64,000 bases of DNA from Hyphomicrobium nitrativorans NL23 (lineage in GTDB: Bacteria; Pseudomonadota; Alphaproteobacteria; Rhizobiales; Hyphomicrobiaceae): the NCBI RefSeq assembly GCF_000503895.1, contig NC_022997.1:3537821-3601820 (forward strand), written 5' to 3'. Shown here in pieces: positions 20,532-29,982 of the stretch. Position 1 is the stretch's first letter. Each line of letters starts with the position of its first letter. The notes beneath the pieces are model-generated. The model worked only from the letters and a program-made list of their open reading frames with translations. It did not search any database and had not been told where the DNA came from. The position numbers and the translations under genes were made by a program.

Positions 20532-20843
20532 GCGTTCGTTCCCTCAGTTCCTCGGCCGGCTCGCTTCCAACGGGAAGTCTAGCCATGCCGTCCGTTTCCA
20601 ATCAAGCCCGATAGGGGCATCGTCTCTTGCGTGCCACGCTCGGCTGCTCGCGTTCCGTCGGCGGGTTGAAGGGTGGAGCCCCGCATAGTATCTCGACATC
20701 GAGGCTCGCGTTCTCGTGGGCCCGCTCCCGCTTGGCTCGCGTCATTGGGGGGAGCACACCGTCAGTTCTCGTCGTCTGTCACGATCTCCGCCGTACCAGC
20801 AGCTTTCGGCGCGATCGTGACGAAGCGTTGCGTGGAGACCCGC
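20532..20843. other. Divergent intergenic region before the AsmA-like gene
   Basis: The 312 bases separate a minus-strand gene from a plus-strand gene and should hold both promoters. No RNA gene or further coding region was recognised. The AsmA frame stays open through part of it (from 20673), but that part has no signal-anchor character. Confidence 0.4.
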
Positions 20844-22985
20844 ATGGTAGAAGATACCGGAGCGCCAACCGCCTCGGCGGCGGCAGCGGGACCCAGAAAG
20901 CGCAGCAAAGGCTGGCGGATTTTCCGCCTCGTGCTGATCGGCGTCGTCGTCTCGGCGGGATTGCTGCTCGCCTTCCCGCCGCTCGGGCTGATTAAGGACC
21001 AGATCGCCAAGAGCGCGGGCGACGCAATCGGCCGCACAGTGACCATCGGCGAGATGGACTACCGGCTGAACCCGTTCCTCACGCTCGAATTCAAAGACGT
21101 GCGCGTGTCGAACCCACCCGGAATGGCGGAGCGCGACCTGTTTCGCACCGACACCGCCCGCGCGACGGTCGAGTTCTTCCCGCTGCTCAAGGGGCGGGTC
21201 CGGCTGGACAGCCTCGCATTGATCAACCCGCTGCTTTCGCTCGAAGAAGCGGCGGACGGGAGACGGAACTGGGTCGTGACATCGCCAGGCACCGCGCCGG
21301 GCGTCGCGCCGCAGGCAGCGACAGCGACGGTTGCGGAGTTCCGCCCACCCTCCGTCACGACGGTGGAAAACGGTCATGTCACTTATGCGAGCGCCGCGGC
21401 CAGCAGCCAGCACGCGGCGAGCCGGATCAACGGCACCGTGCTGCTCGATCCCGCAACCGGCGGGGCGACGGCAAAAGGCAATCTCGACGCGGGCGGCGAG
21501 ACGGTGACTTTCGATGCCGCGCTCGGCGATTACGACGCGCCCCTGACGGGGGGCTCGTCGTCCCTCAAAGGTTCGCTCGAAGCGCGTCTCCTCAAAGCTA
21601 CGCTCGACGGTGATGCCGCGTTCGCCTCGGACGCCGAATTCATAGGCGGGCTTGCGGCATCGACGCCCTCGCTCATCGATTTCGTGCGTTGGGTCGGCAC
21701 CGACACGGCACCGGGCGGAGAACCGCTCAAAACATCGCTCGAAGGGCACGTCGTCGCTACCACGGGCGACATCGCGTTCACCGACACCGACGTGATGGTC
21801 AACACGACGGCGAGCCGCTTCAACGGCACGCTCTATTTCGCAGGCGAACGGCCGAAAGTCGCGGGCGACATCGCCAGCGAACACATCGACATCGACCGCA
21901 TTCTCGGCACGACGCGGCGGACCTCGTTCATGCCGCTCGAACCCGAGACGACATTCGAGCCGCTCGTGGCACCCGGCTGGGAGCAGCTTCTCGCCGACCT
22001 CAAGGCGCTCGAAGCCGGACCGCAGGCCGCGCCGCAGGCGGCTCCTTCAGCCGTGGCCGCGCCAGCGTGGAGCGAGCAGCCGTTCAATCTCAAGGCGATC
22101 CGCGCGGTCGATCTCGATGTCACGATCCGTGCGATGCAGGTGAGCTACGGCCAACTCGACCTGAAGCACGGCAAGGTCAAGGCCGACATCGCGGACGGCG
22201 TGCTCGACGCGAAAATCGAGGAACTCGCCGTCGGTGCGGGCAACGCGGTCGGTACGCTCAATCTCGACGCGCGCGCAGAGCCGCCGAAAGCCGCCGTCAA
22301 CCTGACGCTTAACAATGTGGCGGCCGAACCGATCGCCATCGAGCTTACCGGCAATCCGCTGCTCAGCGGCACGTCCAATGTCGAGATCAGCGCGACTGCG
22401 GCCGGGCAGAACCAAAGCCAGCTTACGGCGACGCTCGACGGCAAGGCGCGTTTCCAGATGGGGCAGGGCGCGTTGCGTGGCTTCAACGTGCGGCGCATGA
22501 TCTTCGAGTGGTGGAAGAGCTGGACGTTCGATCTCTCGCAACGCACGAGCTTCGAACGGCTCGATGCGCAGTACGACATCCGCCGCGGCATCATGCAAAG
22601 CCGGCCCGGACTTTCGATGGGCGGCCCGGAGGTGGAGATCAACTCGACGGGATCGGTCAACGTGCCGGCGCGCAGCCTGAACCAGGAGATCCGCGTGAAG
22701 GCGATCCCGCCGCCGACGGCGCTGCCGATCCCCGTGCGGATTTCGGGAAGCTGGGCGAGCCCGTCCATCGGGATCGACTGGTGGGGCCTGTTCTCGGCCG
22801 CGCCGGATCTCGGCGGACCGCAGGCGCTTCAGCCCGCACCGGAGCCGCCGCCGGCAGAGGTCGAAGTGGCGATCCGCCGTGTGCTGGCGCTCAACCTTCC
22901 GTCCGACCAACTCTCGCCGCAGGCGCGGGATATGCTCCGCTCTCTGCTGCCGAGGAATGACGATCCGACTGAAGAGTCTCCTTAG
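20844..22985 (+). CDS. AsmA family protein
   Basis: A 713-residue inner-membrane-anchored protein with one N-terminal membrane segment (about residues 26-46) and a large periplasmic part. The start of the domain, [32 protein letters not shown], is the AsmA N-terminal pattern, and the C-terminal part with [14 protein letters not shown] is also typical. AsmA-like proteins are relatives of bridge-type lipid transporters and affect outer-membrane make-up. The ATG at 20844 has GGAG six bases upstream. Codon use is like its neighbours. Confidence 0.9.
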
Positions 22986-23092: not shown

Positions 23093-24712
23093 GTGAGGGT
23101 AGCTCGTGGACTGGCGTTGTGCGCCGTGCCGGTGGCAATCGGCGGCGCGTTGCTCGCGGCCTCGGCACCGACGCATCAGGACCGCGCGCATGCGGCAGGG
23201 CCCAGCGCACCGCCCTCTCATCTCATCGGCCGCGATATCGCGACGTACGCGCTGATCCAGAGCATCGCGGGGCCGGGCCTCGGCGCCGGGACGATGCCGG
23301 GTGTTGCGACACGTAAAGGTCAACCCGCTTTCGATCCGTCTTGTCTTGCCGATAACGGTGGAACAGACGGCGTGCAGCTTGCGCGTTGCAGTCTGCTTCC
23401 ATTGCCGGGCGAAGAGCCATCCGAACCGGAGCCCCCCGGCGGCGGGACGGGCCCGGAAACGCCTCCTCCCTCAAGCGGCGGCCAGACGCCCGAACAGGCG
23501 GGGTTCGCGTACTATCCTCCCGGCAAGATGCACGACAACGATCTGCGTCAAGGCCGCGTGGGCGACCGCTACGTCTATCTGCCGAACATCGTGTTCCCGC
23601 TCAAGCTCGGGCAGGGCCAGTTTCCGCACATGAACTCGCAGATCTTCGGATACGGCGGCGGCGGATGGGGCGGCAAAGGCAAGGCGGGCGGCTCGGAAAG
23701 CGACCGGCGCAACTTCGATCCGCTGCGCCAGCAGGACAATTTCTGCGAGGTGCGCTCGTGGGCGATGCCGATGTGTCCGAGCGGCACGGGCCATCAGGGC
23801 CAGGACATCCGTCCGCCGACGTGGCAGGACAATCATTGGGACGTCATCGCGGCGACCGATGGCACCGTCACCAACGTGACCAGCAATACGACGGTGCAGA
23901 TCAAAGCGCCCGACGGCACCGACTATTACTATCTCCACATGCATCCGCGCTCGATCACCGTGAAGACGGGCGCGAAGGTCAAGCAGGGCCAAGTGCTCGG
24001 CAAGGTCTCCCGCTACATGGGCGGCAAAGTCGGCACGAGCCTGCATCTGCACTTGCAGGTTCGTCAGCGGATTTCCGTCGGCGGCAAGGTGCAGCAGGTT
24101 TACGTGCCGATCTATACGTCGCTGATCGCGGCGCTCCGGCGCGAGAAGGGACTCGAAGCGGGGATCGGAGCGGACGGCAATCTCGCCGTCGACCACCTGC
24201 TCGAAATCGGCGCGCCTAAGCCGCCGCCAACGCCGCAGCCCGAGCCGTCGCCCGAGCCAGAGCCAACGCCTCAACCTGAGCCGGCACCCGAACCAGAACC
24301 CGCGCCCGAACCTGCGCCGCAGCCGGAACCTCAGCCCGAGCCGACACCGGAGCCTGGACCTACGCCTGAGCCCGAACCTCAGCCGGAACCCACACCGACG
24401 CCGGAGCCGGAGCCCGAACCGCAGCCTCAGCCTCAGCCCGAGCCTGAGCCGACCCCGGAACCGGAGCCACAACCGGAGCCCGCTCCGACGCCAGAGCCAG
24501 AGCCGGAACCGACACCTGCGCCTGCGCCGGAGCCTGAACCCGCGCCGCCGGCCGAAGAACAAGGCTGGTGGGATTGGATCAAGGGCTGGTGGCCGTGGGG
24601 CGGCTCGCAAGAGCCTGCCTCTGGAGTTCAGCCTACACCGCCCGCGCAACCGTCCGAAGACGGCTGGTGGGAGCGCATCAAGAAGAACTGGGGCGAGCGG
24701 CTGGGCTACTAG
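23093..24712 (+). CDS. Secreted M23 family metallopeptidase with Pro/Glu repeat and Trp-rich tail
   Basis: A 539-residue exported protein starting at a GTG with AGGGGG upstream. After a signal peptide ([18 protein letters not shown]) comes an M23/LytM-type domain with all four zinc and catalytic residues: His234 and Asp238 in GHQGQDI, and His318 and His320 in LHLHLQV. This family cuts peptide cross-links of peptidoglycan, or glycine-rich peptides. Residues about 377-487 are an uninterrupted Pro-Glu repeat, followed by a [13 protein letters not shown] segment and a WWERIKKNW segment. The gene is 51 bases upstream of the S8/M4 protease gene, probably one operon. Confidence 0.88.
24221..24550 (+). 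repeat. Pro-Glu coding repeat inside the M23 gene
   Basis: About 110 codons encode an irregular run of P-E-P with Gln, Thr or Ala as the fourth member ([17 protein letters not shown] and variants). The DNA unit is a degenerate six- or twelve-base repeat (cc-gag-cc) that could slip in replication. The peptide would be an extended, acidic, rigid spacer of the kind that spans periplasm or cell wall. Confidence 0.9.
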
Positions 24713-24763: not shown

Positions 24764-27700
24764 ATGCCGAGACATACGCCGGGATACGCCGTGGCGATGC
24801 TCATGGCGCTTACTGTGCCGATCCTTTCGACGGCGGAAGCGCAACTTCCGCCCTCGCAGTACGACCGGCTGCAGCGCACGCTCGAAGAGCGCTTCGCGCC
24901 GCCGAAGCAGCAACGGCCGAGAGCGCCCGCCACCGGCGGCACGTCCGGTTCGACGGGCGATTTCATCTATGTCGAGCCCGACGGCAAGGCGAAGCAGACG
25001 ACGCCCGCGCCTCTCCCGAAGCGCTCCGACGTAAGCTCCGACGGGAGTTGGGGCAAATCGATCTATTCTTTCTTCGCAACCCGCCTCGGCGGGGCTACGA
25101 GGCAAACGGAAGTGGCCGACGTGCGCGTGGCGGAAGGCCCCGCGCGAGCGGAACCTGCCGAGGCCGTGCAAGAGACCGAAGCGGATTCCAAGACCGAAGA
25201 GGTGCGCCAGCGCTCCCGCGAGCGGCGCGCCGAGCGGAACCGCGAACGGCGGCGCTATCATCGACGTCCGGAGCGCGGCACGGGCGAGCGTCACCGCCAC
25301 CGCGTGCCCGTCGCCAAGCCGAACAGCTACGTCATCCAGCTTGCGCCCGACGCCGCGGCCGACGACATCGACTCGTTGCTCACGAAATACGGGCTCACCG
25401 TTACCAAAATGATCGCCCCTCTCGGCGTGCTCACCGTCGAACTCGATCCCGCCGCGGTGCGCCGCGAGGCCGCGCGTGCCGCGCCGGAGCCTGCGATCCA
25501 AGATACCAAGACGCAGCTTCAGTCCATTCTCGAACCGCCGCTGATCCAGGAGCTGCGCGAGGAGAAGATCGTCGACGCCGCGTTCGTCAACTCGGTGATG
25601 GAAGCCCGCCATCTTCCCGGCCCGACCGGGGCTTCGATCACAGTCGATAACGAAGTGTTCTCGTGGCGCTGGAACGCAGGGGCTGGCGAGGACGGAAACT
25701 GGGGACTGAAACAGATCCGCGTGCCGCCCGTCTGGACCGTGCTCAAACGCCATCGCGAGGCCAATCCGGATGCGTTGCGCCCGAAGATCGGCATCGTGGA
25801 CGGCGGTTTCGCGACCGATCCCGCCGTGTCATTCGCGTCCATGCAGAACGTGCGCCCGCTCGCGACGCATCAGGCCGGTTGCGGCACGCATCACGGGATG
25901 CACATCGCCGGTATCATCGGCGCACGCCAGAGCGGGCGGCCGGGCATCGACGGCATCATTCCGGACGCGCGCATCGACGCGATTGCGATCGACGACGCCA
26001 TCGTCGGAGATTCGGGCATCGTCGGCATCGACGCGGGCTGGCAGGTGCACGCGCTTCTGTTCGACGATGTGCTCGCGCGGACGCTCGACTACGTCTATGC
26101 GGACCTTTTGAAACCCGACAACCTGCGCGTCATCAACATCAGCCTGGGCTACAATTTCGTGGCGTCGAACCTGCTCGGCGACGCGCATCCGCAGGATGTG
26201 CCGGGGCTCGGGTTGCACATCATGCATCAGGCGAACCTGATCCGGCTGATGGCGAGCCGGGTGCAGGAGAACGTGCTGTTCGTGGTGGCGGCGGGCAACG
26301 ATTCCGACGGCCGCGAGGACCCCATCGAAGCCAAATGGGCGTCTCCCTTCGCCTGGGCCGGCACACAGCGCTCGGCGGCCGGCGAAACGCCGTCCAACAT
26401 TCTGGTCGTCGAAGCGATCGACCGGGACGGGCTTCGCGCCGACTTCTCGAACACGGGCGGGCACGTCTCGGCGCCTGGTGTCGACATCATGAGCACACTC
26501 GACGCGAACCGGATGCCATTCGGCGTGTGCAGCGGAACCTCGCAGGCCGCACCGCACGTGGCCGCGCTCGCCACCATCCTTTTCGAACTCGCACCCGACA
26601 AATCGCCTGCGGACATTGCGCGCATTCTGCGCGAGACCGGCACGCCGCCTGAAGAAGACGAGGAGAACGCGCCCACCATCGACGCGTTCGACGCCGTCGT
26701 CGCGCTGGCGCCCGACAAGGCCCGCCTCGTAGCCGACCTCGACGGCGACGGCGTGGTCGGCCCGAACGATCTCGCGCTGTTCCAGCGGCATCTCGAAAAG
26801 GTCGCGACGGCAGCAACGGCCAACACCACCTTTGCCGAGGACCTCAACGGCGATGGCGTGATCGACGACAACGAGTGCTTCTGGCCCAGGATCGACCTCA
26901 ACGGCAGCGGGCATGGTGCGCTCGCGTCGCGAGATGCGCGGAAAATCGGCGGGGCCGACCTCACCGATCTCGCTGTGATCGAACTCTTCTGGTCCGATCC
27001 GGCAGTTCCGTTCGGCACGGCAATCGCCGCTTCCGGCCTTGCGACGCCAGCCGAGATCTACACGGTCGCGGAACTCGACCCGGCTCCGATCACGCAGTGC
27101 CGCCGCACGATCGGGCCCGATCTCACAGTTGCGGACGCCACGCCGGTCACGCCGGGCTCCGGCACCTCGACAGCGCTTGCAGCCACGGCCAGTGGCGCGA
27201 CAGGCGGCGTCGCGGATGCCAAAGCCGTTCGCGCCGACGTCGAAAAAGCCATCGCGGAGTTGCGTAAGACCCATCCCAACCTGCGCGTTACGCTCGATCC
27301 GAAGACGGGACTGCCGAGTTCCGTCATGGGCATCTCGCCGCTTCCGGGCACGACGTCCATCGGCGCGGGCCGCACGGGCGACCTCACGGAGGAAGAGGTC
27401 AAGAGGGCGGTCGATGCCTACTTCGGGCAAGGCGGACTTGGCTCGCTTCATCCGTCGCGGAACACGCGCGTGACCTCCGAATACCTCGGCCGCCGCAAAG
27501 ACCCCGACTTCCCGGATCGCTACGTTGCCGACGTGGAGCAGCGGATCGACGGTGTGCCGGTGTTCGGTTCACAGGCCAAGCTCACGGTCTCGCGCGCGCT
27601 CGGGGTGACGAAATACAGCGGCACGACGTCCAACGTCGCAATCGAGACGACGACGCCGAAGATTGCGGAAGGCGAGGCCATCGCGGCCGCGCGCGCCAAG

Positions 27701-28912
27701 TTGGCAGAGGTGCTGCGCAGCTCGCCGGATGCGTCGCGTGCATTCCCGCTGGCGCCGAACCCGGAGAAGGTCGAGGTCGGAAAGCCCGATCTCATCGTGT
27801 TCGATCCGGCGCTGGTCGGAAAAGTTCAGGATGGCGGGCGCACGCGGCTTGCGTGGCTGGTCTCCATCGACGCATTCCGCATCTTCGTGGACGCGGAGAC
27901 GGGCGAGCCATTTTACTATTATCGCGATCAGCCATCGGGGATGCTGAGGCGCATCTACGATCTCGGACAGAATACGACGTTCCCGGGTGCGACCGCGATT
28001 GACGAGAAGGAACGGCGGCGAACGGAAAAACTCTCGCCGGAGGCGCTGATTGCGTTTCGGAACGCCGGTATCGTGCGCGACTACTTTTTCATCACCTTCG
28101 GCCGCAACAGCTTCGACGACAACGACGGCAGCGGTGGTGCACCGCTCGAAGCCTATGTCCGCTACGGAGAGACAAAAAACGCCTACTGGTGCACGGGCAA
28201 ATCCTATGGCTGTCCCGGCGCCAACGTGATGGTGTACGGGCCCGGCTATGCGGATGCCCTCGATATCGTCGCGCACGAGATGACGCACGGCGTCATCGTG
28301 CACGAGAAGAACCTGCTCTATCTCAACGAGCCGGGTGCGGTGAACGAGTCTCTTGCCGACATCTTCGGCGCGCTCATCGAGCTGGAGTTCAAGGGAGAGG
28401 CCGGGAACTGGCTGATCGGCGAGCGGACGCCGGGCTTCTCCGTCACGTCGCCGCTGCGCAGCCTCGCCGATCCGAACTTGCGGAATGTGCAGGGCCAATC
28501 GATGTTCGACCGGACGCAGCGGTACTCGCTCGCCAATCGCGGGCAGCCGGACCATTACAGCGAAGTTCTGACGCCCGCCGACACCATGTGCGGCTCCACC
28601 GCCTATAACGATAACGGCTGCGTGCACTTCAATAGCGGCATCCTGAACAAGATGGCCTACCTCACCTCCGAGGGCGGCACGCATCGGGGCGTCACGGTGC
28701 GCGGCATCGGGCGCTACAAGCTCGCGCGGATCACGTATCGCGCGATGACGGTCGGACTCAATCGCAGCTCGACGCTGTCGCACGCCGCGAATGCGTTCGT
28801 CGAAGGATGCTTCGAGCTTGCGAGCGGCGAGATCGGCGGGCTGGTCCCGGCGGACTGCGAGCAGGTGATGGCGGCGCAACGCGCCGTCGGTCTCGACGTG
28901 CCGTCGAGCTGA
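24764..28912 (+). CDS. Giant secreted protease: S8 subtilisin + dockerin-like loops + FTP propeptide + M4 thermolysin
   Basis: A 1382-residue exported protein. Order: signal peptide (1-26); low-complexity, very basic linker (about 140-185); inhibitor-like region VIQLAPDAAADDIDSLL; S8 domain with Asp346, His377 (HHGMHIAG), Asn512 and Ser593 (GTSQAAPH); two EF-hand/dockerin-like calcium loops at 658-669 and 693-704; FTP/PepSY-type propeptide (about 820-1060); M4 domain with HEMTH (His1171, Glu1172, His1175), third zinc ligand Glu1195 in NESLADIFG, and Asp1283/His1288 in DNGCVHFNSG. Spacing of all active-site residues fits the reference enzymes. Both proteases should be active and each carries its own pro-region. 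It follows the M23 gene in a probable operon. Confidence 0.92.
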   Translation: MPRHTPGYAVAMLMALTVPILSTAEAQLPPSQYDRLQRTLEERFAPPKQQRPRAPATGGTSGSTGDFIYVEPDGKAKQTTPAPLPKRSDVSSDGSWGKSIYSFFATRLGGATRQTEVADVRVAEGPARAEPAEAVQETEADSKTEEVRQRSRERRAERNRERRRYHRRPERGTGERHRHRVPVAKPNSYVIQLAPDAAADDIDSLLTKYGLTVTKMIAPLGVLTVELDPAAVRREAARAAPEPAIQDTKTQLQSILEPPLIQELREEKIVDAAFVNSVMEARHLPGPTGASITVDNEVFSWRWNAGAGEDGNWGLKQIRVPPVWTVLKRHREANPDALRPKIGIVDGGFATDPAVSFASMQNVRPLATHQAGCGTHHGMHIAGIIGARQSGRPGIDGIIPDARIDAIAIDDAIVGDSGIVGIDAGWQVHALLFDDVLARTLDYVYADLLKPDNLRVINISLGYNFVASNLLGDAHPQDVPGLGLHIMHQANLIRLMASRVQENVLFVVAAGNDSDGREDPIEAKWASPFAWAGTQRSAAGETPSNILVVEAIDRDGLRADFSNTGGHVSAPGVDIMSTLDANRMPFGVCSGTSQAAPHVAALATILFELAPDKSPADIARILRETGTPPEEDEENAPTIDAFDAVVALAPDKARLVADLDGDGVVGPNDLALFQRHLEKVATAATANTTFAEDLNGDGVIDDNECFWPRIDLNGSGHGALASRDARKIGGADLTDLAVIELFWSDPAVPFGTAIAASGLATPAEIYTVAELDPAPITQCRRTIGPDLTVADATPVTPGSGTSTALAATASGATGGVADAKAVRADVEKAIAELRKTHPNLRVTLDPKTGLPSSVMGISPLPGTTSIGAGRTGDLTEEEVKRAVDAYFGQGGLGSLHPSRNTRVTSEYLGRRKDPDFPDRYVADVEQRIDGVPVFGSQAKLTVSRALGVTKYSGTTSNVAIETTTPKIAEGEAIAAARAKLAEVLRSSPDASRAFPLAPNPEKVEVGKPDLIVFDPALVGKVQDGGRTRLAWLVSIDAFRIFVDAETGEPFYYYRDQPSGMLRRIYDLGQNTTFPGATAIDEKERRRTEKLSPEALIAFRNAGIVRDYFFITFGRNSFDDNDGSGGAPLEAYVRYGETKNAYWCTGKSYGCPGANVMVYGPGYADALDIVAHEMTHGVIVHEKNLLYLNEPGAVNESLADIFGALIELEFKGEAGNWLIGERTPGFSVTSPLRSLADPNLRNVQGQSMFDRTQRYSLANRGQPDHYSEVLTPADTMCGSTAYNDNGCVHFNSGILNKMAYLTSEGGTHRGVTVRGIGRYKLARITYRAMTVGLNRSSTLSHAANAFVEGCFELASGEIGGLVPADCEQVMAAQRAVGLDVPSS

Positions 28913-28986: not shown

Positions 28987-29982
28987 CTACGAGATCGGCG
29001 AGATCGTGCCGCCTTCGACAAGCGCTTTCAGCATCACCGCCGCGCCGCACTGATTGGAGACCGCGTTCGCGTCCCACACGTTGTCGCGGACGAACTTGCC
29101 CTTGGTGTAGTGGTTGGAGAAGCTCCAGAGGTAGGGCGTGTTGATCTTGTAGAGCAGACGGCTGCGCCAGCCGTTGTAGGATTCCCAGCGGTAGAGCGTG
29201 CTTGCGAGATCCCAATCCGCCTGCTCGTCGAGCTTGTCGTAGCGCAGCGCGTCCGTCGCGCTCGATACCCAATCCGACGGCGGCAGCCACGGCACGGGGC
29301 GGCCCGCCGGAACGCGCGTCGTCTTGGCGCGCAAGGGATCGCCGTTGTGAAGGTGCGAGTTCATGTCGAAACCGCATTCCATGCCGTGGATGATGGCCAC
29401 GACATACCACGGCACACAGGTGCGCTCGGTCACGGCCTCGTAGTTCTTGCGGCGCGCGGGATCGGTGATGCGCGTCAGATACCACTGCACAGTGGAGCGC
29501 TTGTCGGCGCGGATCTGGCATGTGGCGAAGAGCTGGCGGTAGCCGTCGGCCACCTCCGAGAGTGGCGGGCGCTGGATGGGCTGTGCCTGCGGGCCCTCCG
29601 GGATATCACGAGGAACGCGCTCCTCGTCGAGCAGCGAACGGAGAAGATCGGACGCGCGCTCCACGAGCCGGTCCACATCGGCCGACGTTGCGCCCGGCGC
29701 ATCGGGCGCGGATGCCGCGACCGAATCCATGAAGTCCACGATAGACGTCTGCAGCTCGATGAAATCCTCGCCCGCGGCCGAGGGCGCGAGCCCCATGCGC
29801 GGCACGGAGAGACCGAGGCGCTGCGCTTCCTCCGAGAGGTCAGCGAGGGACGACCACTTGTCTCTCACGATCTGGGCATATGCGGGCGTGAACAGATCGA
29901 TGTGGGCGGCGAATGGCGCGGCGAAGGCCGCGGCAGCAAGACCCATCACAACCTGCCGCCTGTCGATGTTCCCCCGTGTCAT
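28987..29982 (-). CDS. Tat-exported lysozyme-like protein (putative)
   Basis: A 331-residue protein with a twin-arginine signal (NIDRRQVVMGLAAAAFAAPFAA, cut short here at 22 residues of context). The C-terminal half has the pattern HGMECGFDMNSHLHNGDPL, LYRWESYNGWRSR and SPYLW-like TPYLWSFSNHYTKGKFV, which recalls small muramidase-like or phage-lysozyme-like proteins where the first Glu (Glu202 here) would be catalytic. The family call is from memory of such motifs and is moderate. It converges on the S8/M4 gene and is the third potential wall- or protein-degrading enzyme in a row. Confidence 0.7.
   Translation of the reverse strand: MTRGNIDRRQVVMGLAAAAFAAPFAAHIDLFTPAYAQIVRDKWSSLADLSEEAQRLGLSVPRMGLAPSAAGEDFIELQTSIVDFMDSVAASAPDAPGATSADVDRLVERASDLLRSLLDEERVPRDIPEGPQAQPIQRPPLSEVADGYRQLFATCQIRADKRSTVQWYLTRITDPARRKNYEAVTERTCVPWYVVAIIHGMECGFDMNSHLHNGDPLRAKTTRVPAGRPVPWLPPSDWVSSATDALRYDKLDEQADWDLASTLYRWESYNGWRSRLLYKINTPYLWSFSNHYTKGKFVRDNVWDANAVSNQCGAAVMLKALVEGGTISPIS

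What the first reader, a model, noticed from the sequence alone, without database searches (positions are those of the whole stretch)
24764..28912. One secreted polypeptide carrying two complete, unrelated proteases (S8 and M4)
The 1382-residue protein has a full S8 triad (Asp346, His377, Ser593, with Asn512) and a full M4 site (His1171, Glu1172, His1175, Glu1195, Asp1283, His1288). Between them lie two dockerin-like calcium loops (658-669, 693-704) and an FTP-type propeptide for the M4 part. Serine and metalloprotease modules in one chain would allow one to cut or mature the other. I know of S8 and M4 proteases each with many accessory domains, but not of this order as a described family.
Basis: partly seen in the sequence, partly recalled or inferred. 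Interest (0 to 1): 0.75.

Follow-up and report, generated by a model that had tools for sequence, protein, structure and literature searches.

The report
Two proteases fused in one gene
A Hyphomicrobium gene really does encode two unrelated, apparently intact protein-cutting enzymes in one exported chain; relatives show it most likely arose by joining two neighbouring genes, and it sits beside genes for enzymes that probably cut the bacterial cell wall.

Summary
The 1382-residue ORF (24764-28912, +) carries a subtilisin-family (S8) and a thermolysin-family (M4) protease with every named catalytic residue. It is not an assembly artefact. Of 103 genomes of its family, 20 carry the pair: 15 as one chain (8 of its own genus, 7 of two other genera) and 5 as two adjacent genes, S8 then M4. 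In those five the S8 gene stops just after a Cys; 79-97 nt later M4 starts with a signal-peptide-like sequence of its own. The fused chain has a variable linker there. Fused and split forms form separate groups with one change between them; stand-alone M4 outgroups favour a single fusion. Both catalytic domains are under purifying selection, the linker much less. An M23 peptidase gene lies upstream in 17 of 17 judgeable loci; a putative murein hydrolase gene lies beside it in 19 of 20. 'Secreted' is unproven: the one secretin gene found is Tad-pilus CpaC type. Best reading: an exported two-zymogen polyprotein serving an envelope-lytic gene group. The fusion is well supported; the mechanism is inferred.

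The parts
24764..24841 (+). Signal-peptide-like N-terminus (residues 1-26), cut site by eye after AEA
   Evidence: read from the sequence; 15-residue hydropathy maximum 1.98 near residue 10; no signal-peptide program was available
24842..25309 (+). Low-complexity N-terminal extension (27-182), with conserved R87 and W96
   Evidence: residues 1-182: mean identity 0.51 within the genus, 61 of 200 columns gapped; R87 and W96 invariant in 10 fused chains
25310..25663 (+). Putative S8 propeptide (183-300)
   Evidence: conserved segment before the catalytic domain, omega 0.28; no Pfam propeptide hit
25694..26698 (+). S8 catalytic domain (311-645): D346, H377, N512, S593
   Evidence: Pfam S8 1.4e-26; catalytic residues in 20 of 20; omega 0.18
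26711..27043 (+). Dockerin-like calcium loops (658-669, 693-704) and a third DLNGSG loop (from 711)
   Evidence: Dockerin_1 3.2e-05; Asp, Asn or Glu kept in 20 of 20 at 658, 660, 662, 669, 693, 695, 697, 704
27044..27229 (+). Linker region (761-822), with the fusion point after C779
   Evidence: mean identity 0.40, omega 0.52, 23 of 77 columns gapped; split junctions
27230..27898 (+). M4 propeptide region (823-1045)
   Evidence: FTP below cut-off, E 0.14; omega 0.18
27899..28909 (+). M4 catalytic domain (1046-1382): HEMTH 1171-1175, E1195, D1283, H1288
   Evidence: Pfam M4 1.1e-12 and M4_C 4.5e-30; thermolysin 8e-38; omega 0.12
23093..24712 (+). Upstream M23 peptidase gene, 51 nt before the fusion gene; Pro/Glu-rich stalk and Trp-rich C-terminus
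   Evidence: Pfam M23 2.3e-12; found upstream in 17 of 20 loci, the other three starting within 460 nt of the S8 frame
28987..29982 (-). Downstream convergent gene: putative Tat-exported murein hydrolase
   Evidence: no hit in Pfam up to E 1, NCBIfam up to 0.1 or PHROGs up to 0.01; 31.6% identity over 45% to a Bradyrhizobium phage protein with PG_binding_1; beside S8-M4 in 19 of 20 genomes
20673..22985 (+). AsmA-family gene upstream of M23; part of the neighbourhood, perhaps not of the system
   Evidence: Pfam AsmA 7e-35; match upstream in the 14 other fused loci, downstream in 4 of 5 split loci

Best explanation
This is a genuine, lineage-specific gene fusion: one exported preproprotein with two protease zymogens in series. 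Order: signal peptide, low-complexity extension, S8 propeptide, S8 protease, calcium-binding dockerin-like segment, flexible linker, M4 propeptide, M4 protease. It most likely arose once, in an ancestor of three genera of its family, from two adjacent genes (S8 then M4) when the S8 stop, a spacer of about 80 nt and the M4 signal peptide gave way to an in-frame linker. Likely working (inferred): the chain is exported once, so both enzymes arrive in equal numbers; S8 folds with its propeptide and calcium, matures itself, and cuts the unconserved linker and perhaps the M4 propeptide; M4 then finishes its own maturation. The two proteases serve a conserved gene group with an M23 peptidase and a putative Tat-exported murein hydrolase, that is, breakdown or remodelling of cell envelopes (own wall during budding, or dead or competing cells). 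Shown: the fusion, the intact sites, selection on both modules, the two-gene form in relatives, the gene neighbourhood. Inferred: direction of the change, processing, activity, location, substrate.
For: Both families above Pfam cut-offs. Catalytic residues conserved in 20 of 20. One frame in 15 genomes from three genera, two adjacent genes in 5 genomes from two others. Split junction: S8 ends PC[NQR]*, M4 starts (as chosen) 79, 97, 79, 80 and 80 nt later with a signal-peptide-like N-terminus. Fused and split rows fall on two sides of one branch, one change of state; the 13 M4 outgroups lie in frames of 342-774 aa, and the nearest found, in Sinorhizobium, starts with its own signal-like sequence. 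Within the genus omega is 0.18 (S8), 0.12 (M4), 0.18 (M4 propeptide) and 0.52 (linker). M23 upstream in 17 of 17 judgeable loci. A near-full-length homologue of the downstream gene in 20 of 20 genomes with the pair against 1 of 83 without.
Against: No activity or processing data. No conserved site in the linker, so S8-to-M4 processing cannot be read from sequence. AlphaFold models were too poor to place the domains (pLDDT 38.2 and 48.9). The one secretin found is not of type II, so an extracellular role is uncertain. The downstream gene is a murein hydrolase only by a weak match, and any match to it at 1e-15 is also found in 8 of 83 genomes without the pair. In one fused genome (G020) that gene lies on another contig. 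Support for the fused group is moderate once outgroups are added (87/85, 82/84), with long-branch warnings. Dockerin_1 falls below its cut-off in G020 (20.6 bits). At least 5 genomes of genus g25, which holds 4 of the split pairs, lack the pair, so it is not universal there.
Confidence: 0.6

Rival explanations
1. A nutritional exoenzyme: the fused chain is released from the cell and digests environmental protein, with no tie to the cell wall genes.
For: S8 and M4 enzymes are typically exoproteases (established knowledge); a Sinorhizobium plasmid has a related M4 among other peptidase genes.
Against: Conserved neighbourhood with M23 and a putative murein hydrolase; only a CpaC-type secretin found in the genome; the genus is described as restricted facultative methylotrophs (PMC3894282, whole text read).
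Confidence: 0.25
2. The chain is never cut and works as one enzyme with two active sites of different specificity.
For: No conserved cut site seen in the linker; no evidence that the domains separate.
Against: Both halves keep a conserved region in the propeptide position, and the linker is variable and rich in Ala, Thr, Gly and Pro, an easy protease target.
Confidence: 0.15
3. The fused gene is ancestral and the five two-gene genomes arose by fission.
For: The 20-row trees fix one change, not its direction.
Against: M4 outgroups lie in frames far too short for both modules; fission would also need a new signal peptide, start and stop.
Confidence: 0.1
4. Artefact: two genes joined by a sequencing or assembly error.
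For: If the strain is H. nitrativorans NL23, the genome was assembled mainly from 454 reads at 22x (PMC3894282).
Against: One open frame in 15 genomes of three genera, with purifying selection on the modules.
Confidence: 0.01

Closest known systems
S8 subtilases (Pfam PF00082)
   Same: Catalytic Asp, His, Asn and Ser, a conserved region before the catalytic domain, match to solved subtilisins
   Different: Followed in the same chain by a whole second protease of another family
M4 thermolysin-like proteases (Pfam PF01447, PF02868)
   Same: HExxH, distal Glu, Asp/His pair, M4 and M4_C domains, match to thermolysin
   Different: No signal peptide of its own; preceded by an S8 module; FTP motif below cut-off
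Adjacent S8 and M4 genes of G023, G068, G072, G073, G074
   Same: Same modules in the same order; downstream gene in 5 of 5, M23 in the 2 whose contigs reach that far
   Different: Two genes; Asp1283 replaced by Phe, Tyr or Leu
Sinorhizobium meliloti M4 (WP_339073277.1)
   Same: About 41% identity over window residues 819-1377, propeptide region included
   Different: No S8 module in the chain; a C-terminal cytochrome c domain instead

Membership tests
Peptidase S8 | Pfam domain above curated cut-off | tested here: met
   93.9 bits against 21.8
Peptidase S8 | Catalytic Asp, His, Ser with oxyanion Asn | tested here: met
   D346, H377, S593, N512 in 20 of 20
Peptidase S8 | Serine peptidase activity | not testable with these tools
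   needs an assay
Peptidase M4 | Pfam M4 and M4_C above cut-off | tested here: met
   49 against 22.4 and 105.2 against 24.4 bits
Peptidase M4 | HExxH, distal Glu, Asp and His of the active site | tested here: met
   H1171, E1172, H1175, E1195, H1288 in 20 of 20; D1283 in 15 of 15 fused, 0 of 5 split
Peptidase M4 | FTP propeptide motif | tested here: inconclusive
   12.5 bits against cut-off 21
Peptidase M4 | Zinc binding and peptidase activity | not testable with these tools
   needs an assay
Dockerin type I | Two calcium loops, Pfam above cut-off | tested here: met
   24.5 against 22.9 bits; below cut-off in G020, 20.6 bits
Dockerin type I | A cohesin partner | tested here: not met
   no PF00963 match at E 0.001 in the own genome; hence only 'dockerin-like'
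Type II secreted exoprotease | Type II secretion secretin in the genome | tested here: not met
   one PF00263 match, a 546-aa protein with T2SS-T3SS_pil_N beside a CpaD gene

The most novel reading that the evidence does not exclude
A single-chain, self-starting protease cascade that arms a cell-wall-lysing kit: S8 wakes first, frees and activates M4, and the pair then activates or trims the neighbouring M23 peptidase (held on a Pro-rich stalk with a Trp-rich tip) and the putative Tat-exported murein hydrolase, giving timed local wall opening, for example at the budding prostheca or against neighbouring cells.
Probability: 0.2. Interest if true: 0.75.

Novelty: new variant of a known kind. Interest (0 to 1): 0.45.

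Why it matters
Two unrelated protease zymogens in one exported chain, with relatives that keep the same two genes unfused, give a natural before-and-after pair for asking what fusing two proteases changes (equal dosage, order of activation, location). The conserved link to putative wall-cutting enzymes suggests an uncharacterised envelope-lytic system in budding methylotrophs and their relatives.

Tried and rejected
Sequencing or assembly error: rejected, one frame in 15 genomes. Chance motif matches: rejected by Pfam scores and conservation.

True cellulosomal dockerin: not supported, no cohesin match in the genome.

Structure: two AlphaFold jobs with 7 close sequences each gave mean pLDDT 48.9 (downstream gene) and 38.2 (residues 183-1382); no fold search was run on them.

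Identity of the downstream gene: no hit in Pfam (E up to 1), NCBIfam (0.1) or PHROGs (0.01); the PDB search with its alignment gave three weak hits, best E 0.056; one phage record matched. I recalled, and did not test, a lysozyme-family group (COG5526).

Shared Trp-rich tag: the DNA pattern for GWWxxIK occurs twice in the own genome, both times in the M23 tail, so that exact form is no genome-wide sorting tag.

Same order elsewhere: 0 of 9 plasmid records with a match at 1e-20 cover 80% of the protein; likewise 0 of 9 phage records at 1e-8 (5 listed). In the class sample 2 of 385 genomes matched alignment A1 at 1e-12, the own one and an M4-only frame; that call scored at most 2 candidates a genome.

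Rooting with Sinorhizobium: I meant to add both the S. meliloti and the S. medicae M4; only the S. meliloti row entered the tree.

Literature: ten searches in all. Seven bore on the fusion, its parts or its host (one search listed 20 of 22 papers, 15 of 22); no title or abstract start in those listings describes an S8-M4 fusion. Searches (the species; bacteriolytic M23; 10 of 162 listed) were also made. Read: PMC3894282 whole; abstract and passages of PMC3327674; nothing else beyond listings. The library lacks most subscription papers, and no domain-architecture database was on hand.
Full report
WHAT IS THERE. The ORF at 24764-28912 (+) is 1382 codons with no stop inside. Pfam places S8 (373-626), Dockerin_1 (657-701), M4 (1051-1178) and M4_C (1183-1351) above their cut-offs, and FTP (925-953) below its cut-off. 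Sequence search of solved structures gives thermolysin-type enzymes for the C-terminal part and subtilisins for the middle part. The genome is one contig of 3,653,837 bases, exactly the length published for Hyphomicrobium nitrativorans NL23 (PMC3894282, whole text); six named relatives are Hyphomicrobium or Hyphomicrobiales. The strain name is an inference from that length. The genome holds one M4_C match and two S8 matches at E 0.001, one of each in this gene.

DISTRIBUTION. A profile of ten fused chains (A1) was searched in 103 genomes of the family: 20 match at 1e-20. In 15 the S8 and M4 modules are in one open frame: 8 of genus g1, 1 of g14, 6 of g23. In 5 they are two neighbouring frames on the same strand, S8 first: 4 of g25 and 1 of g17 (in G073 the S8 frame is cut by the contig start). 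At least 5 other g25 genomes have no match. In a sample of 385 genomes of the class the only other match at 1e-12 was an M4-only frame of 372 aa, with at most 2 candidates scored a genome. In 397 genomes of the order, 17 have M4_C; apart from the fused chains the longest frame holding it is 774 aa. In 398 genomes of the phylum, 41 have M4_C; apart from the two fused chains the longest frame is 835 aa. Those frames were judged by length only, not searched for S8. Other phyla were not sampled.

ANATOMY OF THE FUSION. In all five split genomes the S8 protein ends with Cys and one further residue (PCN, PCQ or PCR before the stop). The M4 start that I chose lies 79, 97, 79, 80 and 80 nt after the stop (G023 also has earlier in-frame ATGs, at 43 and 55 nt) and begins with a hydrophobic, signal-peptide-like stretch. 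In the fused chains a Cys (C779, invariant in ten) stands at the aligned place (G023 aligned) and is followed by a linker without such a stretch in the window protein: the 15-residue hydropathy maximum between residues 745 and 850 is 1.31 at 747, before C779, against 1.98 at the N-terminus. G020 has a longer linker. The simplest account is loss of the S8 stop and of the M4 start and signal peptide, leaving a linker.

DIRECTION. Trees of S8, of M4 and of both put the five split and fifteen fused rows on two sides of one branch with 100/100 support (rooted at the midpoint for drawing only). With 13 other M4 rows as outgroup the two groups have 100/95 (split) and 87/85 (fused). The state changes once. 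Since the outgroup M4 frames are 342-774 aa, and a Sinorhizobium M4 that matches about 41% over the whole M4 module has its own signal-like start and no S8 module, fusion is the more economical direction. In the tree with that protein it joined the split group (93/91), the fused group had 82/84, and the chosen outgroup was not one side of any branch. Long-branch warnings came.

SELECTION. Among the eight chains of the genus (28 pairs), median omega is 0.18 for S8, 0.12 for M4, 0.18 for the M4 propeptide region, 0.20 for the calcium segment, 0.28 for the S8 propeptide region, 0.49 for residues 1-182 and 0.52 for the linker (27 of 28 pairs with finite dS) (simple Nei-Gojobori, median dS 0.72-1.22, so rough). 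Both enzymes are maintained. The linker varies in sequence and length, so no conserved cut site is seen.

NEIGHBOURHOOD. An M23 peptidase gene ends 51 nt before the start codon. It is found upstream in 17 of 20 loci; in the other three (G068, G072, G073) the contig begins within 460 nt of the S8 frame, so they cannot be judged. Its C-terminus is a Pro-rich stalk ending in a Trp-rich tip in 16 of 17 (G002 ends differently). The gene downstream (28987-29982, minus) starts with an RRQ-type, Tat-like sequence (by eye). A homologue lies beside S8-M4 in 19 of 20 genomes, in G020 on another contig. It runs on the same strand as the fusion in the 7 other genus members but convergent in the window, so the linkage survives a change of orientation. 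A homologue covering at least 300 model positions is present in 20 of 20 genomes with the pair and 1 of 83 without; counting any match at 1e-15 it is 20 of 20 against 8 of 83. Fisher p-values (2e-20 and 3e-15) ignore relatedness; by genus the figures are 5 of 5 against 1 of 20 (p = 1e-4), or against 6 of 20 counting any match (p = 0.009). Its function rests on 31.6% identity over 45% of its length to a Bradyrhizobium phage protein that has PG_binding_1; the matched part lies before that domain, so 'murein hydrolase' is a guess of moderate strength.

WHERE IT WORKS. The only secretin match in the genome is a 546-aa protein with the pilus N-terminal domain, next to CpaD, that is, a Tad pilus secretin. 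No type II secretin was found by that search. Signal-like N-termini on the fusion, M23 and downstream proteins (by eye) suggest export to the periplasm; passage through the outer membrane is open.

HOW IT LIKELY WORKS. From established knowledge of the families, S8 and M4 enzymes are made as zymogens and mature by cutting off their propeptides. One chain carrying both would deliver them in equal number, and an easily cut linker would let them part. Which enzyme cuts first is not known. The gene company suggests a role in wall or envelope lysis or remodelling. These steps are inferred.

WHAT DID NOT WORK. The two structure predictions were poor for want of diverse sequences, so nothing is claimed from them. 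No paper describing this order of domains was found in the searches named in Tried and rejected, but that library is partial.

VERDICT. It is, as far as I could test, a new architecture built from two very well known enzyme families, of moderate interest, more so if the envelope-lysis link is borne out.

Noticed in passing
L070:7914-10073 (Sinorhizobium meliloti pEm1132a): The nearest M4 found without an S8 module carries a C-terminal cytochrome c domain (Cytochrome_CBB3 3.1e-06, CRGCH): another unusual M4 fusion, on a plasmid with S8 and M12 peptidase genes.
   Followed up: partly
23093-24712: The M23 protein ends in a long Pro/Glu-rich stalk and a Trp-rich tip ([20 protein letters not shown]). 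A Trp-rich tip is seen in 16 of 17 loci; the DNA pattern for GWWxxIK occurs nowhere else in the genome.
   Followed up: partly
25037-25078: The fused chain's variable N-terminal extension keeps a short Trp-bearing stretch (SWGKSIYSFF here, GWYDTIKKKVWG in genus g23) that looks somewhat like the M23 tip. Meaning unknown.
   Followed up: partly
28610-28612: Asp1283 (equivalent of a thermolysin active-site Asp, recalled) is Asp in 15 of 15 fused chains and Phe, Tyr or Leu in 5 of 5 split M4 proteins.
   Followed up: partly
28987-29982: The downstream gene is convergent here but on the same strand as the fusion in the other 7 genus members: a local inversion that kept the linkage.
   Followed up: no
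L026 (M23 region): In G002 the frame holding M23 ends in a different, non-Pro-rich sequence, perhaps a frameshift in the repeat.
   Followed up: no
20673-22985: A match to this AsmA-family gene lies upstream in the 14 other fused loci; in 4 of the 5 split loci a weaker match (22-25%) lies downstream instead.
   Followed up: no
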